From Acidimicrobiia bacterium (GTDB taxonomy: Bacteria; Actinomycetota; Acidimicrobiia; Spongiisociales; UBA11373): a stretch of 64,000 nucleotides of DNA. The notes below the pieces were generated by a model, which was given only the letters and a program-made list of their open reading frames with translations, was not told the origin of the DNA and made no database searches. The DNA lies in contig CP129495.1 in the NCBI GenBank assembly GCA_030584185.1, forward strand, positions 1-64,000, given 5' to 3'. Within the stretch, counting starts at the first letter, position 1. Each line of letters begins with the position of its first letter. Position numbers and translations under genes: made by a program. Shown in pieces: positions 38,905 to 53,151 of this stretch.

Positions 38905-38977
38905 TCATTTCCGCTGCGGGATCGGCGCCCGGTCGTGTGCGTCCCGGTGGTGCCGGCGGCACAGCAGGACCAGGTTG
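38905..38977 (-). pseudogene. C-terminal HNH fragment of the split DUF222/13E12 gene
   Basis: Read on the minus strand, the bases from about 38977 down to the TGA at 38905-38907 encode NLVLLCRRHHRDAHDR plus a short tail. This is the final half of an HNH nuclease motif (N-x-x-x-LC-x-x-HH). It has no start of its own. The missing N-terminal part lies 14.2 kb away at 53211-54234. Joining the two at the shared CAACC (minus strand) gives an uninterrupted LDNLVLLCRRHH. It is therefore the displaced 3' end of that gene. Confidence 0.88.
38973..38977. other. Left attachment-site core (GGTTG)
   Basis: The chromosomal side to the left reads as the C-terminal HNH codons. The element side begins GAGAGGGTC followed by an arm GGGTAGTCGCAC at 38987-38998. 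The arm is inverse-complementary, 10 of 12 bases, to GTGCAACTATCC at 53191-53202 near the other end. The central TT of the core is the likely crossover dinucleotide. Confidence 0.82.
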
Positions 38978-39039
38978 GAGAGGGTCGGGTAGTCGCACCA
39001 TCAGTCAGGCGAGACACGCCGCCCGACTACCGTCCCTTC

Positions 39040-40098
39040 ATGCCCGGACCGCGATCAACTTGCTACTTTCCGTTGCGATCTAACGCGCATGCGCTCGTTT
39101 CAGGAGGGCCTGCGAATTCTGTCCGGCGGAGGATCATGATCGCGGCTCTCCTCCACGACCAGGTGCTTCTCGAGGACGGCTTGTACGAACTCACCGCCGG
39201 ACCCTCGGGCTCATTCGAGTTCTGGATACCCGAACGCGACCGAGCGCCGGACCGATTTCAGACACCGAGCGAACGAGCTCGCCGAACGGGGTCACAACCG
39301 CTTGTCCTGGTCGGAACCCAAAAACCGCACATCGGTGACGAGCACCTGGGTTGGCAGCCGACGTTTCATCCGCTTAAGGCCGAACTCAAGAAGCCCTACC
39401 GCTGGATCGACTTCGCCACGCCGCGACTCAACTCCGAGGGCGCGCGTCTGCGGGACACGCTCACCAGGAGCCACCTGAACGACGCGCAGTTGCTTCCAAC
39501 CGAACCCCTCTTTGTTCGTAGGGCGGTCCTTGATGCTATGAACGCCGATGCGATCATCGCCATCGGACAAGGAACAGCCTTGAGCGTCGACCGATTCCAT
39601 TCGCTTCTCACCGCGCATCGAGTCCGTACTGGCCTTGCGACGCCCGTACGCGGGCCGCTTGCGGCCTCCGTGGTAGCTCCCCGGGACCTCACTTGGGATG
39701 AGGTGCACGAGCTGCGTGCCATGAATGGATTTCGCGAATGGCGCGCGGTCATTCGAGATGTCGAGAGAACCGCATTGACTTCTGGTCCGGACTTTGAGTC
39801 GGGCGTCCTAAGTGAGCTTGCAGCGAGAAGGGATCACGCGGTGGCGGCGCTGCTCGAGCTCCACAGAACAAGCCCCAAGCTCGCTCGAGCAGCAGGGTTC
39901 GCTGTAGGGGTCATCTCCACCGTGTTGGGCGTGCCTGCTGGGCTTGGACTTGCGGCGCCGCTGGCGGCGGATGTCGCGGCAAGTTCAGCCGTGGAATCCG
40001 CGATTTCGTATCGCTGGCTCACCTTCGACCTGGCGCTCAGACGTGCCAGTTCCGCGAAGGCCCGCTCGGTTACCGACAAGTCACGAAACCCCGCCTAG
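39040..40098 (+). CDS. Unknown protein, first gene inside the element
   Basis: The 352-residue product starts MPGPRSTCYFPLRSNAHALV (ATG at 39040) and has no family I can name. The first 150 residues look globular, with an ELTAGPSGSFEFW stretch. A Gly/Ala-rich hydrophobic segment at about residues 290-325 (AAGFAVGVISTVLGVPAGLG) may insert in a membrane. The rest is mixed helical. The frame is open further upstream, but those codons run across the attachment site. Codon use is less GC-biased than in the chromosome. It could be a cargo gene. No function is proposed. Confidence 0.6.
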   Translation: MPGPRSTCYFPLRSNAHALVSGGPANSVRRRIMIAALLHDQVLLEDGLYELTAGPSGSFEFWIPERDRAPDRFQTPSERARRTGSQPLVLVGTQKPHIGDEHLGWQPTFHPLKAELKKPYRWIDFATPRLNSEGARLRDTLTRSHLNDAQLLPTEPLFVRRAVLDAMNADAIIAIGQGTALSVDRFHSLLTAHRVRTGLATPVRGPLAASVVAPRDLTWDEVHELRAMNGFREWRAVIRDVERTALTSGPDFESGVLSELAARRDHAVAALLELHRTSPKLARAAGFAVGVISTVLGVPAGLGLAAPLAADVAASSAVESAISYRWLTFDLALRRASSAKARSVTDKSRNPA

Positions 40099-40273: not shown

Positions 40274-40969
40274 ATGCCAAGAGTCAGCGCGCTCCGCTCA
40301 ACCCTCCCGAACTGGCTCGGCCTATGGGAGCCGTGGATGTCAGTCGTCGCGTTTCTGCTTGCGGTGGTCGCGTTGCCTGCCATCTTCCAGCAGTTCGGCG
40401 GCGCCGCCAGGGTGTGGTTTGAGTTCATACGACCTCCCCTGGCCGACATCAACAAGATCGCACTCATAGTTGAGATGACACTCCGGCCTCCGAGAAGGGC
40501 CCTGCGTTGGATGGGGGTCCATCGCAACACGAGCCAACAGGTGAGCGCGGGGTTTGCTGTGTTCGACATGAAGGGTGAAAACAACCGGACAGGCGGACTC
40601 ATTGTCCCCCTACTACAGACCGTAGGACGAAGTAACAGCAGTCCTGTTGGTCAGCCATTTGCTCTTCCGGTCGATCAACCCTTCGTTATGCAGATCGCCG
40701 TCAAGGTCCGAGGAGTGGACACATTCGGCGTAGTGCTCCCCAGCCCCAAGAACCTCTTGCTCCCGATCGGAACGTATCGCGTTGAGGTGTTCGGTCACAT
40801 TCGGGAGCGCGGCAAGACCTTCTACGCAGCGCGCTACCTGCTCTGCTCCGTGGACAACCTTGCCTGGGGAAAGGCAGCCAAACCCGTCATCAGGCGCAGG
40901 GGCGGCATCCGACCCAGCCGCGACTCCGTTGCTGTGCCCAGATGGAAGCAAGGGCAAACGCCCCAGTAA
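40274..40969 (+). CDS. Unknown protein with one N-terminal membrane helix
   Basis: The 231-residue product has a hydrophobic helix near residues 20-40 (WMSVVAFLLAVVALPAIF) and a soluble remainder with beta-rich segments (FAVFDMKGENNR, FVMQIAVKVRGV, GTYRVEVFGHI) that could form an immunoglobulin-like or small beta fold. The C-terminal tail is basic. I see no catalytic motif. It lies 175 bp after the preceding unknown gene on the same strand, and 216 bp before the convergent end of the ABC cassette. The ATG at 40274 is the first of the frame. Function unknown. Confidence 0.55.
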   Translation: MPRVSALRSTLPNWLGLWEPWMSVVAFLLAVVALPAIFQQFGGAARVWFEFIRPPLADINKIALIVEMTLRPPRRALRWMGVHRNTSQQVSAGFAVFDMKGENNRTGGLIVPLLQTVGRSNSSPVGQPFALPVDQPFVMQIAVKVRGVDTFGVVLPSPKNLLLPIGTYRVEVFGHIRERGKTFYAARYLLCSVDNLAWGKAAKPVIRRRGGIRPSRDSVAVPRWKQGQTPQ

Positions 40970-41185: not shown

Positions 41186-42418
41186 CTAACCAACTCGGAG
41201 GGCATCAACGGGCTGCATGCGTGCAGCGCGCAATGATGGAAGTGAGCCCGATGCGAGACCGACAATCCCGCCGACGATGGGTCCGGCCGTTACGACCCAC
41301 AGATCCATCGCTGGCGTCCACCCTCGTTGCGCTGACACCACCACCGTCGTCGCGAGGCCGAGCGCCGCACCTGTGACACCACCGAATAGACCGATGAGTC
41401 CTGATTCAAGAACGAATTGAAGGGCGATGTGCTTCCGACGTGCTCCGACCGCCCGTCGAATGCCTATTTCATGAGTCCTTTCGAGCACAGAAGCAAGGGT
41501 CGTATGTGCAATTCCCAGAGCACCTGTGAGCAAGACCATCACCCCCAGTGCCACCGACAGCGACGCGAGATCCGCCGCGACCTTCTCTCTGAGGATTCGC
41601 GGCTCGGGAGGGATTGAGACCCGAAGCTGTCCGGGATCATTCGGCATGAGAGCGAGCGCGGCCTGTTCTGCGATCGTCGCCGCAGCGCCCGGCAGGGTCA
41701 GGATCTCGATCCGGCCGGGTTCGAGCAGTTCCCAAATCTCGCGTGCTGTGGACTCTGGCACGATTACAGCGTTGAGCAAGGACGCGTCGCGATCTACGTT
41801 GCCCAACACGCCAATGATCGTGAATGAGCGTTCGCCCACAAACACTGCCTGACGTTGGTCGACTCTGGTAATCCCGAGCCGATCAGCGGCGCCTCGACCA
41901 AGCACCGCAACACGGTCATGTCGCGCGTCGTGACCGGCATCAAAGAACCGCCCGGTTGACAATGTTGCCGCGATCGCGTTGAACGCGTCTGGAGACAGAG
42001 CAACGACCTCTACGCCCAGAACACCACCGACTTGGACGGGATCAGCGACCTGCAGAGACCGGATGCTTGCCTCCCCGACACTGACCACGGTCAAGGACCC
42101 CACGTCAACGACTCCGTACAGCCGACGCAGCTGGTCGTCCGCATTCCATGGAAGGAGGGCCGACTGCTCGTCGATGATCGAGTCGCTTCGACGTTCCACG
42201 GTGACGGCGGTAACGGATAGCAGGTTGAAGCTGCGTTCCACTTCCGCCCTTGCCGTACTCGCCAAACCGACGGTGGCTACGAGCGCTCCAATCCCGAGCA
42301 TGGTCCCAAGACTCGTCAAGAGGGCTCTGCCTGGTCGTGAGAGCGCACCGATCGCCGCTTCAGAGAGCAAGTCCCTCAGACGCATCTTCGACTTGAAGGG
42401 AGGGCCTGGGGACTTCAT
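41186..42418 (-). CDS. MacB/FtsX-type ABC permease of the element's export cassette
   Basis: The 410-residue membrane protein has the MacB/FtsX layout: one N-terminal helix (LLTSLGTMLGIGALVATVGLA, about residues 33-53), a long extracytoplasmic domain of about 220 residues, then three C-terminal helices. HEIGIRRAVGARRKHI near 315 is the FtsX coupling motif and the tail ends ARMQPVDALRVG. Such permeases do not make a channel through the bilayer but act by mechanotransmission on an adaptor. It is the last gene of a five-gene minus-strand cassette. Substrate unknown. Confidence 0.88.
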   Translation of the reverse strand: MKSPGPPFKSKMRLRDLLSEAAIGALSRPGRALLTSLGTMLGIGALVATVGLASTARAEVERSFNLLSVTAVTVERRSDSIIDEQSALLPWNADDQLRRLYGVVDVGSLTVVSVGEASIRSLQVADPVQVGGVLGVEVVALSPDAFNAIAATLSTGRFFDAGHDARHDRVAVLGRGAADRLGITRVDQRQAVFVGERSFTIIGVLGNVDRDASLLNAVIVPESTAREIWELLEPGRIEILTLPGAAATIAEQAALALMPNDPGQLRVSIPPEPRILREKVAADLASLSVALGVMVLLTGALGIAHTTLASVLERTHEIGIRRAVGARRKHIALQFVLESGLIGLFGGVTGAALGLATTVVVSAQRGWTPAMDLWVVTAGPIVGGIVGLASGSLPSLRAARMQPVDALRVG

Positions 42419-42420
42419 GT

Positions 42421-43125
42421 CTACGCCTCCGAGAGAGTTCCGTCGTCGAGGGTCAGGACTCGTGAAGCGCGGTTACCCAAGCGTGGATCGTGAGTGACAA
42501 TCACGACGGTGAGGCCATCAGAGTGCAGCTCGTCTATCAAGTCGAGCACCGTTCCCGCTGTGTCACTGTCGAGGTTCCCAGTGGGCTCATCGCACAACAG
42601 GAGGGACGGGGTTCTCGCGATCGCTCGAGCGATCGCAACCCGTTGGCGCTCTCCTCCCGAGAGGTCTCTGGACAAGAACTGCGATCTGAGATTGAGTCCG
42701 ACCCGCGAGAGGGCCTTCGTTGCGAGCGCTCGCCGCTCCCTTCGCGCAACCCCGCTGTACAACATGCCGACCATCACGTCATCCTCAGCGGTTCGATGTC
42801 TTGACAGGTGGTAGTCCTGGAACACGAAGCCGATCTCGTGGCCTCGGATGGCGGACCGTTCCGCATCGCCTAGATAAGCAACCTGATGCTCGAGGAATTC
42901 GTGGTCACCATCCGTGGGCTTGTCCAGGAGACCGATGATGTTCAGCAAGGTGGATTTCCCTGAGCCCGACCGCCCCCTAACGGCAATGTAGTCGCCACGC
43001 CACACTTCAAGGCTCACTCGGCGTAGGGCAGTCACGGGGCTACGCCCTGGGTAGATCCGGCTTACGCCAGACAGCCGTACGAGTGCCGACGCCTCGGTTC
43101 CACTAGCCACTGGGCGCTGTGCCAA
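42421..43125 (-). CDS. MacB/LolD-type ABC ATP-binding protein
   Basis: The 234-residue ATPase shows Walker A GRSGSGKST, the MacB/LolD-type IGFVFQDYHLSRHRTAEDDV, signature LSGGERQRVAIARA, Walker B LLLCDEPTGNLDSDT and the H-loop IVTHDPRLG. It pairs with the FtsX-type permease whose gene begins 2 bp after its stop. The ATG at 43125 lies 23 bp inside the adaptor gene's end. A later start (about residue 15) would remove the overlap, so the exact start is uncertain. Confidence 0.9.
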   Translation of the reverse strand: MAQRPVASGTEASALVRLSGVSRIYPGRSPVTALRRVSLEVWRGDYIAVRGRSGSGKSTLLNIIGLLDKPTDGDHEFLEHQVAYLGDAERSAIRGHEIGFVFQDYHLSRHRTAEDDVMVGMLYSGVARRERRALATKALSRVGLNLRSQFLSRDLSGGERQRVAIARAIARTPSLLLCDEPTGNLDSDTAGTVLDLIDELHSDGLTVVIVTHDPRLGNRASRVLTLDDGTLSEA

Positions 43126-44212
43126 CGATCACTAGGTCACCCACGGTGAGCTGACCGACTACAACGGGATCGACCTCAACCATGCCATCGGGACTACTCA
43201 GTCCTGTCAGCACCTCAACGTCCGAAGTCACCCCCGCCGGCGTCACAACCGTCACGTAGGTCCTCGAGTCTCCCCTGCTGAAAAGCGCGGCGAGCGGGAC
43301 AGCGAGCACTGGTTCGGGCGTTGAGCGAGACTCGATCTCGATCCTGATCCGGACAGGCTGGGGTCCCTGAACCTCCAGGTCTCGCTGAACAGGTGTGAGT
43401 CTGACAAACACCTCATCGGGCCCGGCGCCCTGCGTGCCCGGGCGTGTCGCGATTTCCGTGACGATCGCTTCAATCGCCGTGAGGCCGATGCCAACTTCAA
43501 CGGTGCCACTATCTCCAACAGCAAGATAATCAACCTCGTCAAGACTCACGGCAGTGTCAATGCCAAGTTCCACGCCGGAGATCTCCAAAATCGGTCCTGC
43601 TGCAATGTCCCCGACCCGAGCGCGTAAGTCGCCCACGCGGAACGGAACAGTTGCGACAATCAGGATTTCGGTTCTCGGTGCTGGCCTTCCCGGGAGAGGT
43701 GAGTACCCTTGGGATTCGTAGAGCATCTGAATGGCGTCTCGGGTTGCGCGTCCGTAGATCCCGTTTGTGGGTCCGTCGTAGAGTCCCAGCTGTGTGAGCG
43801 CCTCCTGCAGAACCGCGATGTCCTTCCCGGTTGCCCCGGCTGTGGCGGTGCGGAACAGCGGGAACTCTCCAGGTAGAACGATTGCCGGGCGACCCGCGAT
43901 CTCGTAAACGACGTCTCCCTCGTTGATGATTGTTCCCGCCTCGGGAAGCCACGTGATGACCGGCAGGAGGCCGCTCACCTCAACATCAGCCGCGGATAGT
44001 GTGCCGAGGCTGTCGAACCCGAGCGTGCCACGAGTGACCACTTGATTCGTGATGCGCACCAGCTGAACAGGCACCGTGACTGGTTGGGGGGGCGGCAGAG
44101 TGGTTTCCGCAGACGCCTCCTGGGGTGTAGCGAGCTTAGAAATCGCGATCGAGGCAGCGATCGCCGCCATCAAAGTCGTAGACAGAAACGCGATGAAGAT
44201 GCGACGGTTCAT
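43103..44212 (-). CDS. Secretion adaptor with peptidoglycan-binding domain
   Basis: The 369-residue protein starts with one membrane anchor (residues 4-25). A beta-barrel-like segment follows, then a peptidoglycan-binding type 1 domain at about 127-170 (GKDIAVLQEALTQLGLYDG, RATRDAIQML), and a C-terminal half with HlyD/MacA-type features (VGDIAAGPILEI, PVLAVPLAALF). Such adaptors bridge a MacB-type ABC pump and the cell wall in Gram-positive bacteria. The order lipoprotein-adaptor-ATPase-permease and spacing of only a few bases support a single complex. Confidence 0.85.
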   Translation of the reverse strand: MNRRIFIAFLSTTLMAAIAASIAISKLATPQEASAETTLPPPQPVTVPVQLVRITNQVVTRGTLGFDSLGTLSAADVEVSGLLPVITWLPEAGTIINEGDVVYEIAGRPAIVLPGEFPLFRTATAGATGKDIAVLQEALTQLGLYDGPTNGIYGRATRDAIQMLYESQGYSPLPGRPAPRTEILIVATVPFRVGDLRARVGDIAAGPILEISGVELGIDTAVSLDEVDYLAVGDSGTVEVGIGLTAIEAIVTEIATRPGTQGAGPDEVFVRLTPVQRDLEVQGPQPVRIRIEIESRSTPEPVLAVPLAALFSRGDSRTYVTVVTPAGVTSDVEVLTGLSSPDGMVEVDPVVVGQLTVGDLVIVGTAPSG

Positions 44213-44219
44213 CAGCGAG

Positions 44220-45194
44220 TTACTGCTCGGGGGAAACGATGTTCAGGAACTCGCCATACCGGTCAACAGCCGAGCGCGCCTCATCGACCGCCAAGGCAAG
44301 GCGATCCCCATTGCTCCGAAGCCACTCTGCTTCGTACTCTGCTCGGACCAAACGCTCGGTTGTTGCCTGCGCTTCGAAGCAGGCACGCGCCGACTGGTTG
44401 TAGGCGCGCTCGTTCGCAGCAACTACGAGCAGCTGTTCCTGCGCGTCCTGATAGGACAGATCACCCTCTCGATAGTGATCGAAGATCGCGGAGGCCTCCG
44501 CCTGAAATCGGTTTGAGGCCTGTTCCATTCCCCCCCTCTCGAATCCCTGATTCGCGACACACGCCATCGCATCCTCTGCCGCCTTGATGACGCGGGCGTC
44601 CTGGGTAACCCGCGCGTTAAGATCTCCAGTCTCGATCGTCAACCATGAGGCCAGCGATGCGAGCGGATCAGGGAACTGCGCGATAGCTGTGCTCCAGCAT
44701 TTCGCCTCGTCTTCCGAGTACTCAGGAGAACCCGGCTCGCTGGGAAGGGGCTCAGGTGCGGCTAGGACTTCGAGCAAGTTGAGGAAGTACTCCGCAACAT
44801 CTCCCGTAAGTGAACTGCGAGGTCCCGCGGAGACGTTGGGTTCCTCGACCGATGGCAGATCGTTAAGACTGAAGTCCCATCCCTGGGCCACCATGCAATC
44901 AACGATCGCTTCGTATCTGGCGAGGTCCACGGCTCGAAGGATCTCGGACTCCGAGTAGCCAAGGACCTCTTCGATGGCTGCCTCAACCGGAAGTACGCGA
45001 CCTGTGTAGGCTCCTTCAGCCGCTCCCTGGTCACCTGCCTCGCCCTTCGCGCAGGCGATCACGACGAGCATGGACAGCGACACAAGCACCGCTCGACCTG
45101 CACGCCTCCGCCCGCAGTATCCCCCAGGGCGATTCGCACCGGATAAGACAACAGCTGCTGTACGCGCCGGTCTCACTCGCTTGTGTACCCTCAC
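44220..45194 (-). CDS. Lipoprotein of the export cassette, unknown
   Basis: The 324-residue product has a lipobox LVVIAC with cysteine at about residue 48. The 47 residues before it are longer than a usual signal, so the true start may be an internal GTG nearer the hydrophobic run. The mature part is acidic and helical. It contains several cysteines (IVDCMVAQGW, EAKCWS, MACVANQGF, RACFEAQA), with a repeated C-x(2-3)-Q-G-W/F style pattern (DCMVAQGW and ACVANQGF). It lies 7 bp before the adaptor gene and 75 bp after the small secreted protein. I infer a surface sensor, immunity or accessory role, but no motif proves it. Confidence 0.65.
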   Translation of the reverse strand: MRVHKRVRPARTAAVVLSGANRPGGYCGRRRAGRAVLVSLSMLVVIACAKGEAGDQGAAEGAYTGRVLPVEAAIEEVLGYSESEILRAVDLARYEAIVDCMVAQGWDFSLNDLPSVEEPNVSAGPRSSLTGDVAEYFLNLLEVLAAPEPLPSEPGSPEYSEDEAKCWSTAIAQFPDPLASLASWLTIETGDLNARVTQDARVIKAAEDAMACVANQGFERGGMEQASNRFQAEASAIFDHYREGDLSYQDAQEQLLVVAANERAYNQSARACFEAQATTERLVRAEYEAEWLRSNGDRLALAVDEARSAVDRYGEFLNIVSPEQ

Positions 45195-45269
45195 TTTCGC
45201 CCACGCGGGAGGACCCGCGCGGGAGTCCTTACCGAACCTGCCATGCGGAACTTACCGTGCCCCAACCTC

Positions 45270-45683
45270 CTAGAAACCGTAGTTCGATCCGGTGGTCGCA
45301 CAGGTCCGCGTGTATGGCCAACTGATCAATTCCTTGCATAGCCGGAAGTACGCGAAGCTGTTGTTGTCATAATACGTGAACTGCACCCACTCGCCATATG
45401 AGGGCTGCGACTTGAAGTAGCCGGTACTCGGCCAGGACTCAAAGAAAACGAAGGCGCCATCGGTCGCAGTATCGTGCACCTTCCCTACGTAATAGAGGTC
45501 CCCGTCGCAGGTCGAGGCATAGGCTACGGTTTCCTCGCCCCATCCCGCCGACGACCACCACGGAACGTCCCACCTACAGTGCGCGTTCGCGCTGCGCATG
45601 CTCACGATGCTGAACGCAACGACAAGCACTCCCAGAACCGCGCCAACCAACGGCCTACGCCATGTCGTGACCACTTTCCACAC
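45270..45683 (-). CDS. Small secreted aromatic, four-cysteine protein at the head of the export cassette
   Basis: The 137-residue product has a typical Sec signal peptide (RRPLVGAVLGVLVVAFSIVS, then SANA at 31-34, cleavage likely after A34). The mature 103 residues are short, rich in Trp, Tyr and Phe (for example DVPWWSSAGWGE and YGEWVQFTYYDNNSFAYF) and hold four cysteines (C36, C59, C116, C128), which could form two disulfides. No known family fits. In particular it does not match lactococcin 972 motifs. As first gene before a lipoprotein, adaptor and MacB-like pump it may be the exported or sensed ligand, bacteriocin-like at most. This is inference. Confidence 0.65.
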   Translation of the reverse strand: MWKVVTTWRRPLVGAVLGVLVVAFSIVSMRSANAHCRWDVPWWSSAGWGEETVAYASTCDGDLYYVGKVHDTATDGAFVFFESWPSTGYFKSQPSYGEWVQFTYYDNNSFAYFRLCKELISWPYTRTCATTGSNYGF

Positions 45684-46127: not shown

Positions 46128-47759
46128 CTACGAGGCAGCCGGGGTCCAGGGGAGCCCCGCAAGGGAGACTCCTACGCCCATGTTCCCGAGGGTGCGTGCT
46201 GCTTGCGCCAGCGCCACCTGGCTGAAGAAGGGCAGGTCCTCCGCAGGGCTCCCATTGTGTGCTGTTCCGAGGATCAGGTACACGACGTTGTAGTCCGATC
46301 CAACCTTGCCGTCTTCAGCGAGGTCTACGAAAGTAGGGTTGAGGCGCCTGATCCTCGAGGTCAGCCGCCTTCGGAAGGCTTCGTCGCCGAGGACTGAGTC
46401 CATTGCCACCGTCGCTTGACTCCACAGGTGGCTGAGGGTGCTCGACTGAGATCGTCGCTTCGCGAACACGAGAGTCTTGCGATCCGGCAGCGCGAGATCG
46501 CAGAACTCGATCTTGTTGGCACCGCCTCCGATGGGGATGGTCTTCTTGTCGAGCAGCAGCGCGCCCAGCTCACTCGCGGCCCGCTTGTTGTAGGCGGGCT
46601 CGTCATCTGTGTCCATGAGCACGGGGAACCGGACTGAGCTCAGTCGTATTCGAGCTGTGTCAGATCGAATCCGCTTCACGAAGTCTGACTCGATCTGGTA
46701 CCAGTCTCCATCTACGAGTTGGTAGGTCTCGCCCGCGGGACCGTCGACTTCGGCGATCAGGCATCGATAGACGCTCGCCAGGTTTCGATGCTCTGCGCCC
46801 TCGTAGCGGATGAGCACCTTGTCTCCATGTATCCGATCGATGCTTACGTCGTCTTCGCGCGTCGATAGGTACTCCTCAAGTCGGAGATCCGTGCGGAAGG
46901 TCTTCTCGCGGCCTCTCTCGCTTGAGAAAGCGAAGCCTTCGAGTTTCTCCAGTTCAAGCACTTCAGGCGCGGCGAGGTATAGGCAGCGGAACTCCGAGTC
47001 TCCTTGCTCGCCGACAGCAATGAGTGCGGCCGCGAGCTTCCGGTCCAAGGACTCAGAGGTGTCCTCATCGACTCGTTGCACGAAGTCCACGAATGCGAAG
47101 TCGGTCTTGTAGTCGTCGCGACGAGAGATCTGAAGGAGATCTCGGGCCTTCTCGGCTAGCCCTTCGGCGCTTATGCGCACATCAATCGTGACGCCCGTCG
47201 ATCCTCTCACAAGCGGGCCAACCACTGCTTCGTAGAGGCTCTTGGTCGCCCCGGCGGCACCCTGAAGGATGTCCCTGAAGATGTCGAGAGAGAAGGCGCC
47301 AAGGTCGGTGCCGCTGCTCGACTGAAGGGTCGTTCTAACAACGACATCATCCTGGCGCCATGTGTTGAAGCCCCGCAGGCGTGCCGGATCTACCGTGTTG
47401 AGAGCGACCCGGATCCCAAATGTCCGATCGACATAGCGCTGGTTGATCAGGTAGCGGCCGTGCCCGAACGTGAAGCAGACGATCCGGCTGTTCGGACCGG
47501 AAATGGCCGGTCGTAGGACGAGGAGCGCGCTCGTGGTGCGGATCGCTGGAGCCCGGAGATCATCGCTTGAGATCGGGTCGAGGAACTCGACCCACCATGG
47601 GACCGTCTCTTCCGACGTCTTTAGATAGAGGGCGCCCTCCAGCCCTGACTCACGTGTGAGTCTCTTCTCGGTCAACCCGTCTACGCCGCGCACTACATCC
47701 TCTCGAGACGTTCCCGGCCTCATCAGAAACGCGGTCAGGTGGCGACGAGCATCGACCAT
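46128..47759 (-). CDS. DUF6119 / TIGR04141 sporadically distributed protein
   Basis: The 543-residue protein matches the TIGR04141 family over its length: an N-terminal ARRHLTAFLMRPG, FGHGRYLINQRYVDRTFGIR near 125, the ALNTVDPARLRGFNTWRQDD block, a SLDIFRDILQGAAGATKSL block and a C-terminal nuclease-like DLALPDRKTLVFAKRRSQSS with a HLWSQA segment. The last resembles a conserved K/H-containing core. The family is known for patchy presence on mobile DNA and near restriction or defense genes. Its function is not established. The ATG at 47759 matches the family start, so the upstream open frame is dropped. It is likely cargo of the element. Confidence 0.8.
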   Translation of the reverse strand: MVDARRHLTAFLMRPGTSREDVVRGVDGLTEKRLTRESGLEGALYLKTSEETVPWWVEFLDPISSDDLRAPAIRTTSALLVLRPAISGPNSRIVCFTFGHGRYLINQRYVDRTFGIRVALNTVDPARLRGFNTWRQDDVVVRTTLQSSSGTDLGAFSLDIFRDILQGAAGATKSLYEAVVGPLVRGSTGVTIDVRISAEGLAEKARDLLQISRRDDYKTDFAFVDFVQRVDEDTSESLDRKLAAALIAVGEQGDSEFRCLYLAAPEVLELEKLEGFAFSSERGREKTFRTDLRLEEYLSTREDDVSIDRIHGDKVLIRYEGAEHRNLASVYRCLIAEVDGPAGETYQLVDGDWYQIESDFVKRIRSDTARIRLSSVRFPVLMDTDDEPAYNKRAASELGALLLDKKTIPIGGGANKIEFCDLALPDRKTLVFAKRRSQSSTLSHLWSQATVAMDSVLGDEAFRRRLTSRIRRLNPTFVDLAEDGKVGSDYNVVYLILGTAHNGSPAEDLPFFSQVALAQAARTLGNMGVGVSLAGLPWTPAAS

Positions 47760-47829
47760 GTGGTGAAGGCTACTAACTGCTCCCAGGCCTCCGCCTTCGC
47801 TTGTGCAACTTGGCTTCGCTTGGTCAAGG

Positions 47830-47852
47830 ACACGCCCCCTGCGGGGGCGTGT
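47830..47852 (-). terminator. Perfect 10-bp hairpin downstream of rep
   Basis: ACACGCCCCC at 47830-47839 and GGGGGCGTGT at 47843-47852 pair perfectly around a TGC loop. It lies 126 bp past the stop of the minus-strand replication gene and 71 bp before the start of the DUF6119 gene. It may terminate rep transcription. In a rolling-circle replicon a hairpin here could also serve replication. It lacks a T-run. Confidence 0.55.
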
Positions 47853-47978
47853 GAGCGTGTCGCCCGGGGCTCTTGAGTGTCTGAGCGGAGTTGGAGACAC
47901 GGTTTCGCCCTGGTGAGGAGAGGTGGCAGTCGATCTTGGGCGCGTCGACTACGGCGCTGGTCAGGGGCTGGCGATGGG

Positions 47979-49367
47979 CTAGAAGGGGTCGGGAAGGTCG
48001 CGCGGGGGTGCGTGAGGCTGACTTGGGTTGTTGTCTGAGTGTCGGGATGGGTGTCTGGATGGGTGACTGGATGGCCCGATCCACCTCCATCTCGCGGGGA
48101 TCGCGGGGCGTTGGCTAGTGGCGGCGGCGTATCTGGCTCGGTTTCGCCGGAGCGCGGTGAAGGTGAGCCCCTTGGGTCGGCAGTGCCTTCCGTAGACGGG
48201 GAGCCACCGACCGGGATGGCGGCGGCTCTCTCGGTGTTCGGTGGCCCAGTGCTGGGACTTGGTGATCGGCTGGCTGCGGATACCGAGGTGTTCGGCGTAC
48301 CTGCCGAGGCGGTGGCGCACCTCACACCGACAGGTGCGGCAGCGGAGGGTGTCAGCGTCGGCGAGGGCCAGTTCTCCGCCACAGGTCGGATTGGGACAGG
48401 GGGCGCCGGGTCGACGGGCGGCGCGTTCGACAGCGACGTGTTGCGATGCTCGCTCAAGACGCTGGAAGTGGGTCTTGGCGTGTGGATTGGCTGCGGTGCT
48501 CCGTACCGTCGACGGGGCGCCTTTGGTGACGTACTTGGCGATGTAGGCGGAGATGCGCCCGACCTGGCGACCGTCGGGGCTGTTCGGGTCGTTGGTGAGA
48601 TGCTGGAGATCGGCGATGTGCCCCCATCCTCGGTTGGGGTTGGCGTACGACTCGTTGGTCCGGTCGATTGCCCTGCGGAGTTGCTCCTCGGTGATGTTGC
48701 CAGCGAGGAGTACGTGGAGATGGGCTAAACCTCGCCGCTGGACTTCGCGGGCTTTGAGGAACTCGGGCCGGTGTCCGAGCTCGCGTTCAAGGTAGACCAT
48801 CAGGCGGCTCCAACGGTCACCGAGTTCCCAGTTCCACTCCGCAGCCGCGGCGTAGTCGAACGCATCGAGATCGACGGGCAACCCGGCAAGCGGATCGTCC
48901 GGCCCATGAATCACCGGGGCCACGGACCGGGATCGACGACCGGCCAGTTTGGCCTTGCCACGGGCGTGTTTGGTGCACCATGCGCAGACGGCGCGTGGCC
49001 GCTGCGCCGCCAGATGTCGTGCCCGGGCAGGGCCCTTCGTGTAACGAGCCCGCCAGTACGCGACGTGGTACCGGTGGATGACGCGCAACTCGGCTGGTGC
49101 ATCGGTGCGCCACATCGGCGGCGCGGTGAGGGTGACGAAGGTGACGGTGCCACCGGGTTCAAGGCGCTGCCAGACTCCGCTGCGGGTGATCGCCTTGGCA
49201 TCGCCCTGGTAGAGCGCGGCGCAGCCTGGGCACAGATCGAAGCTGGTCGCCTTACAGCGCGACAACTCCCGGCGCCCGGTGCGTTCGTCCACGAACAGGC
49301 AAGGACGGACACACCCGAACGGCGTCGAACGCGACTGGGCGGACCCGGTCTCCCGAGGGGCGGCCAC
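47979..49367 (-). CDS. RepSA-like rolling-circle replication initiator
   Basis: The 462-residue protein resembles the RepSA-type initiators of actinobacterial plasmids and integrative elements. N-terminal Cys pairs (GCVRPCLF, FDLCPGCAALYQGDA) look like zinc sites. FVTLTAPP at 77-84 is motif 1. HLH at 216-218 (in GLAHLHVLLAG) is the HUH metal motif. YIAKYVTKG at 275-283 holds the likely nicking tyrosine. A further CPNPTCGG...CRTCRC cluster follows. It would nick the origin and prime rolling-circle replication of the excised circle. The proposed start is a GTG. The protein's C-terminal tail is Pro/His/Ser-rich. Confidence 0.83.
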   Translation of the reverse strand: MAAPRETGSAQSRSTPFGCVRPCLFVDERTGRRELSRCKATSFDLCPGCAALYQGDAKAITRSGVWQRLEPGGTVTFVTLTAPPMWRTDAPAELRVIHRYHVAYWRARYTKGPARARHLAAQRPRAVCAWCTKHARGKAKLAGRRSRSVAPVIHGPDDPLAGLPVDLDAFDYAAAAEWNWELGDRWSRLMVYLERELGHRPEFLKAREVQRRGLAHLHVLLAGNITEEQLRRAIDRTNESYANPNRGWGHIADLQHLTNDPNSPDGRQVGRISAYIAKYVTKGAPSTVRSTAANPHAKTHFQRLERASQHVAVERAARRPGAPCPNPTCGGELALADADTLRCRTCRCEVRHRLGRYAEHLGIRSQPITKSQHWATEHRESRRHPGRWLPVYGRHCRPKGLTFTALRRNRARYAAATSQRPAIPARWRWIGPSSHPSRHPSRHSDNNPSQPHAPPRDLPDPF

Positions 49368-50022: not shown

Positions 50023-50871
50023 TCATGCTGCCGGTGTCGATTGATGTCGAGCTTCGAACTCGACTGGTGTGATCATGCCAAGTGCCGAGTGCCGTCGCTG
50101 CCGATTGTGCCAGATCTCGAGATACTCGAAGATTGCCGTCGCCAGCTCGACTCGAGTCTTCCACCGCCGGGTGTTCAACAGTTCGACCTGCATCCGGCTC
50201 CAGAACGATTCGATGACCGCATTGTCGAAGCAATCCCCGATCGAGCCCATCGACGGGACCAATCCGGAATCGACGGCGCGTTGGGTGAACGCCCACGACG
50301 TGAACTGCGTGCCCTGGTCGCTGTGGATCACGGTCACACCGCCGATGGGCCGGCGGTTATCGATGGCCATCCCGAGGGCGTTGGTCACCAGGCTGGCGGT
50401 GGCAGTCGAATCGATTGACCAGCCGACCACGCGTCGAGAGAATGTGTCCAGGACAACAGCGCAGTAGACCTTGCCTTCCCGGGTGGGATGTTCGGTGATG
50501 TCAGTTACCCACAAACGATCTGGCCGGTCACGACCGAAACGGCGGTCGACCAGGTCCGATGCGGTCGCCATGTTGGGAACCTTGCGAAACTTCGGCCTTC
50601 CGGATAGACCGTGGATGCCAGCCCGGCGCATCAGCATCGCCACCGCCTCAAGCCCGACGGCGATGCCGTGGCCGAGGGTGAGTTCGGCGTGCACCCGCCG
50701 AGCACCGTAGGCAGCCTTGGCGTCGGCGTGGATCTTGCTGATCAGCTCGCTCAACCATGCGTGACGCACCGCTCGAGGCGACAGCGGACGGTCCAGCCAC
50801 CCGTAATAGCCCGACACCGACACCCCCAACACCCGACAGGCCTTCTCCACGGGGAGTCCTTCTGCGGCCAT
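50023..50871 (-). CDS. IS3-family transposase OrfB (DDE integrase core)
   Basis: OrfB carries the HTH_21 region (AAYGARRVHAELTLGHGI) and the rve-type DDE core: first Asp in WVTDITEHPTREGKVYCAVV, second Asp in VIHSDQGTQFTS and Glu in FDNAVIESFW, followed by EYLEIWHNRQRRHSALG. All three acidic residues are present. It can be read alone from the ATG at 50871, which overlaps the OrfA stop, or as an OrfAB fusion by -1 frameshifting at 50895-50901, which makes the active transposase in this family. Confidence 0.92.
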   Translation of the reverse strand: MAAEGLPVEKACRVLGVSVSGYYGWLDRPLSPRAVRHAWLSELISKIHADAKAAYGARRVHAELTLGHGIAVGLEAVAMLMRRAGIHGLSGRPKFRKVPNMATASDLVDRRFGRDRPDRLWVTDITEHPTREGKVYCAVVLDTFSRRVVGWSIDSTATASLVTNALGMAIDNRRPIGGVTVIHSDQGTQFTSWAFTQRAVDSGLVPSMGSIGDCFDNAVIESFWSRMQVELLNTRRWKTRVELATAIFEYLEIWHNRQRRHSALGMITPVEFEARHQSTPAA

Positions 50872-51176
50872 CACCCGGATCGCCGCGAATCGCCTTTTGG
50901 GGAGGCCTCGCCCTTCAACAACTCGGTGGCTCGCCGGTGGATAGCGACCTCGATCTCCAACTCCCGAATCCGCCTCCGGGCAGCGACCAGCTCGGCCTTC
51001 TCCCCAGACGTCAACCCCGGCTCCACGCCAGCGTCGATGCGGGCCTGACGTCGCCACGTGTAGATCGACTGGTCGCTGATCCCCAGCTCGGCCGCCACCT
51101 CCGCCACCCGGCGGCCACCCTCGACCAGGTCCACCACACGGCGCCGGAACTCCCCCGGATACCCTCTGCGTGCCAT
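50871..51176 (-). CDS. IS3-family transposase OrfA
   Basis: The 101-residue protein has the helix-turn-helix of IS3 OrfA (FRRRVVDLVEGGRRVAEVAA, LGISDQSIYTWRRQARID) and a C-terminal leucine-zipper-like helix (EKAELVAARRRIRELEIEV). It binds the IS ends. Near its end the minus strand reads CCCAAAA (plus-strand TTTTGGG at 50895-50901), a canonical X-XXY-YYZ slippery heptamer in the right phase for a -1 shift into OrfB. Confidence 0.9.
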   Translation of the reverse strand: MARRGYPGEFRRRVVDLVEGGRRVAEVAAELGISDQSIYTWRRQARIDAGVEPGLTSGEKAELVAARRRIRELEIEVAIHRRATELLKGEASPKGDSRRSG

Positions 51177-51374
51177 AGGTCCTCCTCACAGACCATGACA
51201 GCAGAATCCAACAATCCGCCTCCGCAGAACCCGGGGCACACCAGGTCACCGAACTCCTAGTCAGAACCCCATCCCACTAACCATCCACAAGGCCATCCCG
51301 GGACCCGGCTGTTCCACAACCCTGCGACCGTTAGACCTGCCTCTCGATTCGGCCGGAGGCACCTCCGGGATACC

Positions 51375-51563
51375 CCGGGACCTGGCCGGGATTGCCCGGG
51401 ACCTGGCCGGGATTGCCCGGCACCTGGCGGACCTTGACCGGCACGTGGCGGATCTTCACCGGCACCTGACCGACACTGCCGGGCACCCGGCGGACCTTGA
51501 CCGGGACCTGGCCCACATTGGCCGGCACCTGGCCCACATTGGCCGGCACCTGGCGGCTTTTCT
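51375..51563. repeat. 21-bp tandem repeat array, nine copies
   Basis: Nine consecutive 21-bp units begin at 51375, 51396, 51417, 51438, 51459, 51480, 51501, 51522 and 51543, with consensus CCGGSACCTGGC then a more variable end of nine bases. Two pairs of neighbours are almost identical. The period is a multiple of three. It could encode heptapeptide repeats, but no start, signal or family supports a gene. It lies between the IS and the integrase gene, inside the element, so iteron or recombination-accessory roles are possible. Confidence 0.85.
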
Positions 51564-51640
51564 CCCCTCGCTGCCGCGGATGCGCCGGGACCGTGGCGGG
51601 TCTTGGCCGGAAACGCCGGCACCTGCCGGCTTTTCTCCCC
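51545..51640. repeat. 23-bp direct repeat with one mismatch
   Basis: GGCACCTGGCGGCTTTTCTC plus CCC at 51545-51567 recurs at 51618-51640 with a single G-to-C change. The rest of 51282-51735 holds the 21-bp array and similar CCGG-rich words and no gene I can support. These repeats end near the integrase stop (51736). Confidence 0.7.
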
Positions 51641-51735: not shown

Positions 51736-53151
51736 TCAGGCGGCCCAGGTGATGTCGATGCGGTCGGGGTCGAAGGTGTTGATCGGCCGGGTGACGGGTT
51801 TGACGGTGAGGGTGGCGACGACCGCGGTGATCAGGGCGCGGCGCCACTCGACGCTGCCGGTATCCCAGGCTTGGCGAAGAGCCTTGTGGGATTTGGGAAG
51901 GTTGGCAGTGGGTCCGCGGTGACGGCTTAGTAGCCGGGAGGCGTCGGCGATGCGCTGGTCGGTGACTTCGCGGATCTTGAGCCACTCCCGTCGGGTGATC
52001 TCACCGGCACCGAACATGGCCGCAGCCTCCTCCCGCCGCGCCTCGGCGGCGGTGAGTTCCCGGGCTGCCTGGGTCTCTCCAGCGTCGCCGCGGCGTCGGG
52101 CGGCCAGGGTCTTGGCCAACTCGGGGCCGGAGACAGCGAAGATCACCGCGTCGCGGACCAGCTCGTCGAGGGGAGCCGCGGTGACGGTGAGTTTGCCGCA
52201 ACCCGGCCCCCCGGGACGAGCCACACAGGCGTAACGGGCCACCCTGGTGCCATCGTTGCCAGGACGCCACGAGGTCCACAGCGGCCCGCCACACCGCCCG
52301 CAGCGGGCAATACCGGAGAGCAGATGCGACGAGGGACGCCCCGGCCGGGCCACCCGCCGGATCCGTGCGGCCAGGGTCTCCCACTCGGCACGCTTGAGGA
52401 TCGGCTGCCACTGCCCGTCGGCGACCACCTGACCCTTGTAGGTGCGCAGTCCGGCGATCCGGGGGTTGCGCAGCACCCCCATCAGCGTGGCCGCCGACCA
52501 GCCGTACCGTGCCGCCTGCGGCGACGGGATACCCCGGCGGTTGAAGTCCCGGGCCACCGCCGGCACCGTCTCCCCGGCCAGTACCCGACGCGCCGCTTCC
52601 CGCACCAGCTCCGCCTCAGAAGGTCGGATCGTGGTCTTGTCGTCCTCCCAGCCGAACGGACGGCGCGAACCACGGGGGATGCCCCGCCGGGCCGCCTGCT
52701 CCGCCTCCCGGGCCACCCGCTCCCCCTTACGCTCCGACTCCTGACGGGCCACCGCCCCCATGATCCGAGCCTTCAGGCGCCCGTCAGAGCTCCCCAGGTC
52801 GGTGTCACCCGACACATTCGCCAAAGCGATCCGCAGCCGATCGGCGAGGGCGACGAACTCCTCCAACTCCGCCGGATGCCGGGTCAACCGGTCCAGATCC
52901 ACACAGATCACCGCATCCCGCAGACCCGCTTCGAGATCGGAAAGCATCCGCCGGTAGGCGGGCCGCACCTTGCCGTTGAACGCCGAGGTCGAACCATCCA
53001 CATACACCTCGGCCACCGGCCAACCCTTCGCCGCCGCCAGCCTGCGACCCAACACCTCCTGGCGGGCCACCCCCAACCCTTCGCCGGTCTTGTCCAAGCT
53101 GATCCGGCAATAGATCGCCGCCGCCGTCGGTTTCCTGGCAGCCACCCGCAA
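51736..53151 (-). CDS. Large serine recombinase (integrase)
   Basis: The 471-residue protein has an N-terminal resolvase domain with the catalytic serine S18 in YCRISLDKTGEG, and the conserved DGSTSAFNG, VICVDLDRLTR and MGAVARQESERKGERV elements. The recombinase domain follows (GIPRGSRRPFGW, ILGVLRNPRIAG-like LMGVLRNPRIAGLRTYKG). A zinc ribbon follows with C284, C287, C309 and C318, then a coiled coil near 345-400. The gene begins 45 bp from the right attachment core, the usual place. It integrates and, with a directionality factor, excises the element. Length is close to that of the phiRv1 integrase of mycobacteria. Confidence 0.95.
   Translation of the reverse strand: MRVAARKPTAAAIYCRISLDKTGEGLGVARQEVLGRRLAAAKGWPVAEVYVDGSTSAFNGKVRPAYRRMLSDLEAGLRDAVICVDLDRLTRHPAELEEFVALADRLRIALANVSGDTDLGSSDGRLKARIMGAVARQESERKGERVAREAEQAARRGIPRGSRRPFGWEDDKTTIRPSEAELVREAARRVLAGETVPAVARDFNRRGIPSPQAARYGWSAATLMGVLRNPRIAGLRTYKGQVVADGQWQPILKRAEWETLAARIRRVARPGRPSSHLLSGIARCGRCGGPLWTSWRPGNDGTRVARYACVARPGGPGCGKLTVTAAPLDELVRDAVIFAVSGPELAKTLAARRRGDAGETQAARELTAAEARREEAAAMFGAGEITRREWLKIREVTDQRIADASRLLSRHRGPTANLPKSHKALRQAWDTGSVEWRRALITAVVATLTVKPVTRPINTFDPDRIDITWAA

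What the first reader, a model, noticed from the sequence alone, without database searches (positions are those of the whole stretch)
41186..45683. Five-gene cassette: small secreted cysteine protein, lipoprotein, cell-wall adaptor and MacB-like pump
All five genes are on one strand with gaps of 75, 7, -23 and 2 bp. The first encodes a 137-residue secreted protein, very rich in aromatic residues with four cysteines and no known family. The pump has a peptidoglycan-binding adaptor, suiting a single-membrane cell. A plausible system is export of, protection from, or sensing of an antimicrobial or signalling protein, carried as cargo of a mobile element. The lipoprotein contains repeated Cys-x-x-x-Q-G-aromatic patterns.
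Basis: inference. Interest (0 to 1): 0.78.

Follow-up and report, generated by a model that had tools for sequence, protein, structure and literature searches.

The report
Secreted-protein and lipoprotein pair beside pump
A bacterium probably of the class Acidimicrobiia carries, on a likely mobile element, a small secreted cysteine protein with its own matching membrane-anchored lipoprotein and a MacB-type pump; related bacteria swap in other secreted proteins, each with its own matching lipoprotein, which looks like an undescribed family of bacteriocin-and-immunity-like pairs.

Summary
The five genes are real and as described. The pump is a MacA/MacB-type ABC system with a peptidoglycan-binding adaptor. 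The secreted protein and lipoprotein match no known family. Comparison with related loci changes the picture. The unit is not "secreted protein plus pump" but a cognate pair: secreted protein plus four-cysteine helical lipoprotein. The tree of the lipoproteins sorts by the class of their small secreted neighbour: this protein, DUF2690, I36/crystallin-like, or a peptidoglycan-binding type (13 label changes against 28 shuffled; three classes form single starred clades). The pump's tree does not. The pump with its lipoprotein often occurs without any secreted partner, and the pair also occurs without a pump. Three such loci exist in this genome. Best reading, inferred: a Sec-exported bacteriocin-like protein, a lipoprotein that binds it as immunity or receptor, and a MacB-type machine that clears or releases it through the wall. 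Nearest in working: lactococcin 972, SDP/YknWXYZ, AS-48EFGH. No activity has been shown, and the structure model of the secreted protein is unusable (pLDDT 47). New variant of a known kind; the cognate-pair pattern is the novel part.

The parts
45270..45683 (-). Small secreted protein (SEC): 137 aa, Sec signal peptide, mature about 103 aa, 24% aromatic, 4 Cys; no known family
   Evidence: relatives
44220..45194 (-). Lipoprotein (LIPO): lipobox, all-helical, two CxxxQG[W/F]...C repeats; four Cys (C100, C166, C212, C272) invariant in the family
   Evidence: pLDDT 79; no PDB fold match
43103..44212 (-). MacA-like adaptor with a PG_binding_1 domain (PF01471)
42421..43125 (-). ABC ATPase, MacB/LolD/FtsE/lactococcin-972-exporter type (start codon uncertain)
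41186..42418 (-). FtsX/MacB-type permease with extracytoplasmic MacB_PCD domain
46128..47900 (-). DUF6119 / TIGR04141 protein, element neighbour, probably not part of the cassette
47979..49367 (-). RepSA-type replication initiator of the mobile element
50023..51249 (-). IS3 family transposase (OrfB part), with OrfA-like HTH_Tnp_1 at 50871-51176
51736..53151 (-). Large serine recombinase (Resolvase, Recombinase, Zn_ribbon_recom), probable integrase of the element

Best explanation
SEC is a Sec-exported, disulfide-containing, bacteriocin-like protein. LIPO is its cognate membrane-anchored partner on the outer face of the membrane, acting as immunity protein or capture receptor. The adaptor, ATPase and permease form a MacB-type machine that does not move SEC across the membrane but works outside it, pushing LIPO-delivered or membrane-bound SEC away from the membrane and through the cell wall, so giving release and self-protection. 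The lipoprotein-pump core is a general module; a secreted gene together with its own lipoprotein clade is the exchangeable specificity part, and here it travels on a mobile element. Shown: gene identities, order, pairing of SEC class with LIPO clade, exchange of the secreted fold, mobile-element context. Inferred: antibacterial activity, binding of SEC by LIPO, and the role of the pump.
For: LIPO tree sorts by partner class: SEC, DUF2690 and PG-binding partners are each one clade (96*, 99*, 96*), 13 changes against 28.1 in shuffles, 0 of 200 as low, although single genomes contribute lipoproteins to several clades, so organism kinship does not explain it. A profile scan of upstream DNA finds a partner family in 32 of 88 LIPO regions against 2 of 321 controls; part of this is by construction because family members trained the profiles, but six partners not used in training all have the class that their LIPO clade predicts. 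Small aromatic-rich secreted ORFs lie upstream of 21 of 86 LIPO genes against 7 of 351 controls, p=6e-11. Unrelated secreted folds replace each other in one gene order, in arrays (L052, L127, L139) and three times in this genome (window; L065; L141). Frameshifted or truncated secreted genes stand beside largely intact LIPO genes, as with orphan immunity genes. The ATPase scores 183 bits with the lactococcin 972 exporter model TIGR03608, below its cut-off. Literature: lactococcin 972-like proteins are Sec-secreted beta-sandwiches with a predicted immunity protein and ABC protein (PMC11796350); YknWXYZ protects against SDP toxin (PMC4887032); MacB works on extracytoplasmic substrates and exports a protein toxin (PMC5985334).
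Against: No antibacterial activity or binding is shown. I36 proteins are named as peptidase inhibitors and PG-binding proteins could be wall proteins, so the partners need not be toxins. SEC-LIPO pairs occur without an adjacent pump (L053, L080, L082) and pumps without SEC, so the pump may have another substrate. SEC matches no bacteriocin model and PF09683 is absent from the class at its cut-off. Within the SEC class alone, co-evolution with LIPO is weak: r=0.48, p=0.006 without the near copy; r=0.35, p=0.08 without the fragment too. Frameshifts in metagenome assemblies may be assembly errors, and a few LIPO genes look broken too.
Confidence: 0.45

Rival explanations
1. Signalling or wall-homeostasis module: SEC and the other small proteins are secreted signals or wall-binding proteins, LIPO is their specific surface receptor, and the FtsX/MacB-type transporter is the transducer or remodeller (as BceAB or FtsEX), not a toxin-immunity system.
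For: Partners include PG_binding_1 proteins and DUF2690; ECF sigma factor genes lie near several loci: L053, L057, L083, L131, L138, L139, L196; MacB-type transporters are also used for sensing and cell division (PMC5985334).
Against: Arrays of many different pairs in one genome, decay of secreted genes and exchange between unrelated folds fit conflict systems better than a conserved signal; the window has no sigma or two-component gene next to the cassette.
Confidence: 0.27
2. Protective secreted proteins: the small proteins are inhibitors or binders of foreign proteases, lytic enzymes or antimicrobials, and LIPO plus pump clear the bound complexes from the wall zone.
For: Inhibitor_I36 matches above the curated cut-off in several partners; the pump type confers resistance elsewhere (abstracts of PMC5768738, and PMC5985334).
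Against: Does not explain why each secreted class needs its own lipoprotein clade; SEC itself has no inhibitor similarity.
Confidence: 0.15
3. Adjacency only: LIPO and pump are a housekeeping export system, and small secreted genes hitch-hike beside it on mobile DNA without functional link.
For: About two thirds of pump loci have no secreted neighbour; the FtsX tree does not track partner presence.
Against: The LIPO tree tracks partner class far beyond shuffles and pairs persist without a pump; 11 of 12 SEC copies adjoin LIPO.
Confidence: 0.1

Closest known systems
Lactococcin 972 / streptococcin B loci (bacteriocin, predicted immunity protein, ABC ATPase; PF09683, TIGR03608)
   Same: Small Sec-exported non-helical protein encoded next to a predicted immunity protein and an ABC ATPase of the same branch
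   Different: SEC has no PF09683 match and carries several cysteines; the partner is a helical four-Cys lipoprotein; adaptor and separate MacB-type permease are present
YknWXYZ of Bacillus (SDP toxin protection)
   Same: MacA/MacB-type adaptor, ATPase and permease in a monoderm cell, linked to a small secreted toxin (PMC4887032)
   Different: From general knowledge, toxin and pump are encoded apart there; no cognate lipoprotein family is described
MacAB-TolC and pneumococcal Spr0693-0695
   Same: MacB_PCD/FtsX permease; PDB relatives found; MacAB exports a protein toxin from outside the inner membrane (PMC5985334)
   Different: No cognate lipoprotein or co-encoded secreted protein; the adaptor here has a peptidoglycan-binding domain
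AS-48EFGH bacteriocin transporter
   Same: MacB-type permease proposed to handle a bacteriocin (table in PMC5985334)
   Different: AS-48 is a circular peptide (general knowledge); no LIPO family is described
Polymorphic toxin / orphan immunity systems (CDI, Rhs)
   Same: Exchangeable effector with matching partner, arrays, remnants of effector genes beside partners (comparison from general knowledge)
   Different: Here whole small secreted proteins of unrelated folds are exchanged, and the partner is one lipoprotein family

Membership tests
Lactococcin 972 family (PF09683) | Match to the Lactococcin_972 profile | tested here: not met
   No Pfam hit for SEC at E<=0.1 and no PF09683 hit for any family member even at E<=10; no hit over the cut-off in 148 class genomes
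Lactococcin 972 family (PF09683) | ABC ATPase of the TIGR03608 group next to the bacteriocin | tested here: not met
   183 bits against a cut-off of 254.85; other MacB-group models score as well
MacB-type (type VII) ABC transporter | FtsX-like C-terminal domain plus MacB_PCD core | tested here: met
   PF02687 E=2e-17 and PF12704 E=2e-16, above gathering scores; PDB MacB E=2e-18
MacB-type (type VII) ABC transporter | MacA-type adaptor encoded with it | tested here: inconclusive
   Adaptor position, N-terminal membrane anchor and recurrence fit, but only PF01471 matched above its cut-off and no HlyD/MacA Pfam domain
Bacterial lipoprotein | Lipobox at the end of the signal peptide | tested here: met
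   LVVIA-C in the window and lipoboxes in many relatives; lipidation itself is not testable here
Actinobacterial integrative element of the pSAM2 kind | RepSA-type initiator | tested here: met
   PF20199 E=2e-30; NCBIfam equivalog RepSA cut-off not reached
Actinobacterial integrative element of the pSAM2 kind | Integrase and att sites | tested here: inconclusive
   Large serine recombinase at 51736-53151 instead of a tyrosine integrase; no att direct repeat found; no tRNA in the window
Bacteriocin-immunity pair | Growth inhibition relieved by the partner | not testable with these tools
   Needs expression experiments

The most novel reading that the evidence does not exclude
An undescribed polymorphic conflict system of Actinomycetota: one lipoprotein family (four invariant Cys, CxxxGF repeats) has diversified into clades, each the dedicated immunity or receptor partner of a different small secreted protein fold, optionally coupled to a MacB-type pump, kept in arrays and spread by mobile elements.
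Probability: 0.4. Interest if true: 0.8.

Novelty: new variant of a known kind. Interest (0 to 1): 0.62.

Why it matters
If true, it gives a rule for finding a new set of antibacterial or signalling proteins in uncultured Actinomycetota: look upstream of the CxxxGF lipoprotein. It would also put a function to DUF2690 and to I36/crystallin-like secreted proteins in this setting, and it makes the open question of what MacB-type pumps with adaptors do in single-membrane cells directly testable, because substrate and matching partner are encoded together.

Tried and rejected
Lactococcin 972 membership of SEC: no profile support. Structure of SEC: AlphaFold2 on 4 sequences gave pLDDT 47, so no fold search was made. 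Structure of LIPO: pLDDT 79, all-helical, no PDB fold match with E<=0.001. PDB sequence search of SEC and LIPO: nothing useful. Plasmid, phage and viral-contig searches for SEC, and a plasmid search for LIPO: no match. Broad genome-contig scan: only two SEC loci, both metagenome assemblies already held. Pump tracking the partner: tested and not found. Residue-level co-evolution of SEC with LIPO inside the class: weak. att repeats: none found. The raw heuristic for small secreted ORFs has a high background (59 of 351 controls), so only the aromatic- and Cys-filtered counts and the profile scan are used.

Full report
WHAT IS THERE. The five ORFs at 41186-45683 are on the minus strand with gaps of 75, 7, -23 and 2 bp, and a codon-usage caller picks all five. 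In transcription order: SEC (137 aa), LIPO (324 aa), adaptor (369 aa), ATPase (234 aa), permease (410 aa). Adaptor: PF01471; ATPase: ABC_tran, best models MacB, LolD, FtsE and TIGR03608, none reaching its cut-off; permease: FtsX plus MacB_PCD, with MacB structures as PDB relatives. SEC and LIPO have no significant family. Mature SEC has 25 aromatic residues in 103, pI 4.7.

SETTING. The genome is one contig of 2.21 Mb. Two relatives with named records are an Acidimicrobiia and an Actinomycetota metagenome assembly, so the class is probably Acidimicrobiia. The cassette is 61% GC against 69-70% around it. Neighbours are DUF6119, RepSA, IS3 and a large serine recombinase. Mobile-element cargo is likely, but the ends were not found.

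RELATIVES OF SEC. They are rare: 8 of 395 genomes of the class and 4 of 297 of the phylum sample, one of them outside the class. Alignment shows up to six Cys. The window lacks both Cys of one pair (TDG-A-F, PSYG) and L052/L053/L080 lack both of another (RLG-K and the C-terminal one). Joint loss suggests disulfides C36-C59, 78-95 and C117-C127 (inference). Of 12 SEC copies seen, broken ones included, 11 lie directly upstream of a LIPO gene; the exception is L196, where SEC follows an ECF sigma gene, a gene in the usual anti-sigma position and a 283-aa secreted protein.

RELATIVES OF LIPO. 34 of 148 class genomes, 16 of 397 in the phylum sample. Four Cys and one Gly are invariant in 13 sequences; two CMxxxGF...C repeats. 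The model is all-helical (pLDDT 79) with no known fold. Nearly every adaptor-ATPase-permease locus fetched through the adaptor has LIPO directly upstream, so LIPO is a regular part of the pump operon. But about 16 of 24 such loci with enough upstream sequence have no small secreted gene, and pairs also occur with no pump near (L053, L080, L082).

THE KEY PATTERN. Upstream of LIPO lie unrelated small secreted proteins: SEC; DUF2690 (L065, L092, L139); I36/crystallin-like (L058, L133, L136, L141, L142, L175); PG_binding_1-bearing (L055, L127, L128, L135); others. Class labels were set by Pfam hits where there were any, else by BLAST or profile similarity within the set. In this genome there are three LIPO loci, each with a different one: SEC (window), DUF2690-like (L065, contig 829-834 kb) and I36-like with another FtsX-type ABC transporter (L141, about 100 kb). 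A LIPO tree of 50 rows puts the SEC, DUF2690 and PG-binding partners each in one clade (96*, 99*, 96*), 13 changes in all against 28.1 in shuffles. Organism kinship does not explain this: G014 contributes LIPO genes to SEC, I36 and PG-binding groups, and G000 to SEC, DUF2690 and I36. With all 86 rows the clustering holds (18 against 27.8), and in that tree several 'no partner' rows lay inside partner clades. A profile scan of the upstream DNA then found partners of the predicted class for L052_3, L083_5, L129_1, L139_5, L139_7 and, weakly, L132_4; overall 32 of 88 LIPO regions against 2 of 321 controls, partly by construction. The permease tree does not sort by partner presence (7 changes against 8.2). 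Hence the specific bond is SEC-LIPO; the pump is generic.

HOW IT PROBABLY WORKS. SEC has a Sec signal, so the ABC machine need not carry it across the membrane. MacB-type machines act outside the membrane and can export a protein toxin (PMC5985334). A peptidoglycan-binding adaptor fits pushing substrates away from the membrane through the wall. LIPO, held at the membrane and specific to the SEC class, fits an immunity protein or a receptor that hands SEC to the pump. Exchangeable effectors with matching partners, arrays and broken effector genes beside LIPO fit a conflict system. Binding, killing and release are not shown. Frameshifts in metagenome assemblies may be errors, and some LIPO genes also look broken, so the decay argument is weak.

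KNOWN RELATIVES. Lactococcin 972 loci are the closest in working: Sec-secreted beta-sandwich, predicted immunity protein, ABC protein; the roles of the last two were unproven there as well (PMC11796350). SEC is not a member: no PF09683 match. YknWXYZ with SDP (PMC4887032) and AS-48EFGH (PMC5985334) are the closest for the pump. A search for DUF2690 found one unrelated paper, and searches for I36 in Streptomyces and for MacB with lipoproteins in Actinobacteria showed no title describing this pairing; the library is open-access only.

VERDICT. The pump types are ordinary; the cognate secreted protein-lipoprotein pairs are the new part.

Noticed in passing
L065 (contig C1 822000-838000) about 7.0-11.5 kb, and L141 (C1 94000-108000) about 5.6-9.9 kb: Two further loci of the same genome with small secreted protein, LIPO and FtsX-type ABC transporter; the secreted proteins are DUF2690-like and I36-like; GC 64-65% against 66-71% in the flanks.
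   Followed up: yes
L052, L127, L128, L130, L132, L139: Arrays of several LIPO genes alternating with different small secreted genes, some of them frameshifted or C-terminal remnants.
   Followed up: partly
L053, L057, L083, L131, L138, L139, L196: ECF-type sigma factor genes close to LIPO, SEC or pump loci, suggesting envelope-stress or density control in some lineages; none beside the window cassette.
   Followed up: partly
window 46128-47900: DUF6119/TIGR04141 'sporadically distributed' protein of unknown function on the same element; no PADLOC match.
   Followed up: partly
window 51353-51640: Tandem 21-bp repeats (8 or more copies) between the IS3 genes and the serine recombinase.
   Followed up: no
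window 38935-40098 and 40274-40969: Two plus-strand ORFs (387 and 231 aa) at the left side of the element without any significant family match.
   Followed up: no
L127 11571-11984 and L130 3372-3809: A further small secreted family (...HFAVLETCSYGADYL...) next to a second lipoprotein and LIPO; no Pfam match.
   Followed up: partly
L171 2054-3501: In a genome of another class a LIPO relative without an obvious lipobox is followed, not preceded, by an I36 protein.
   Followed up: no
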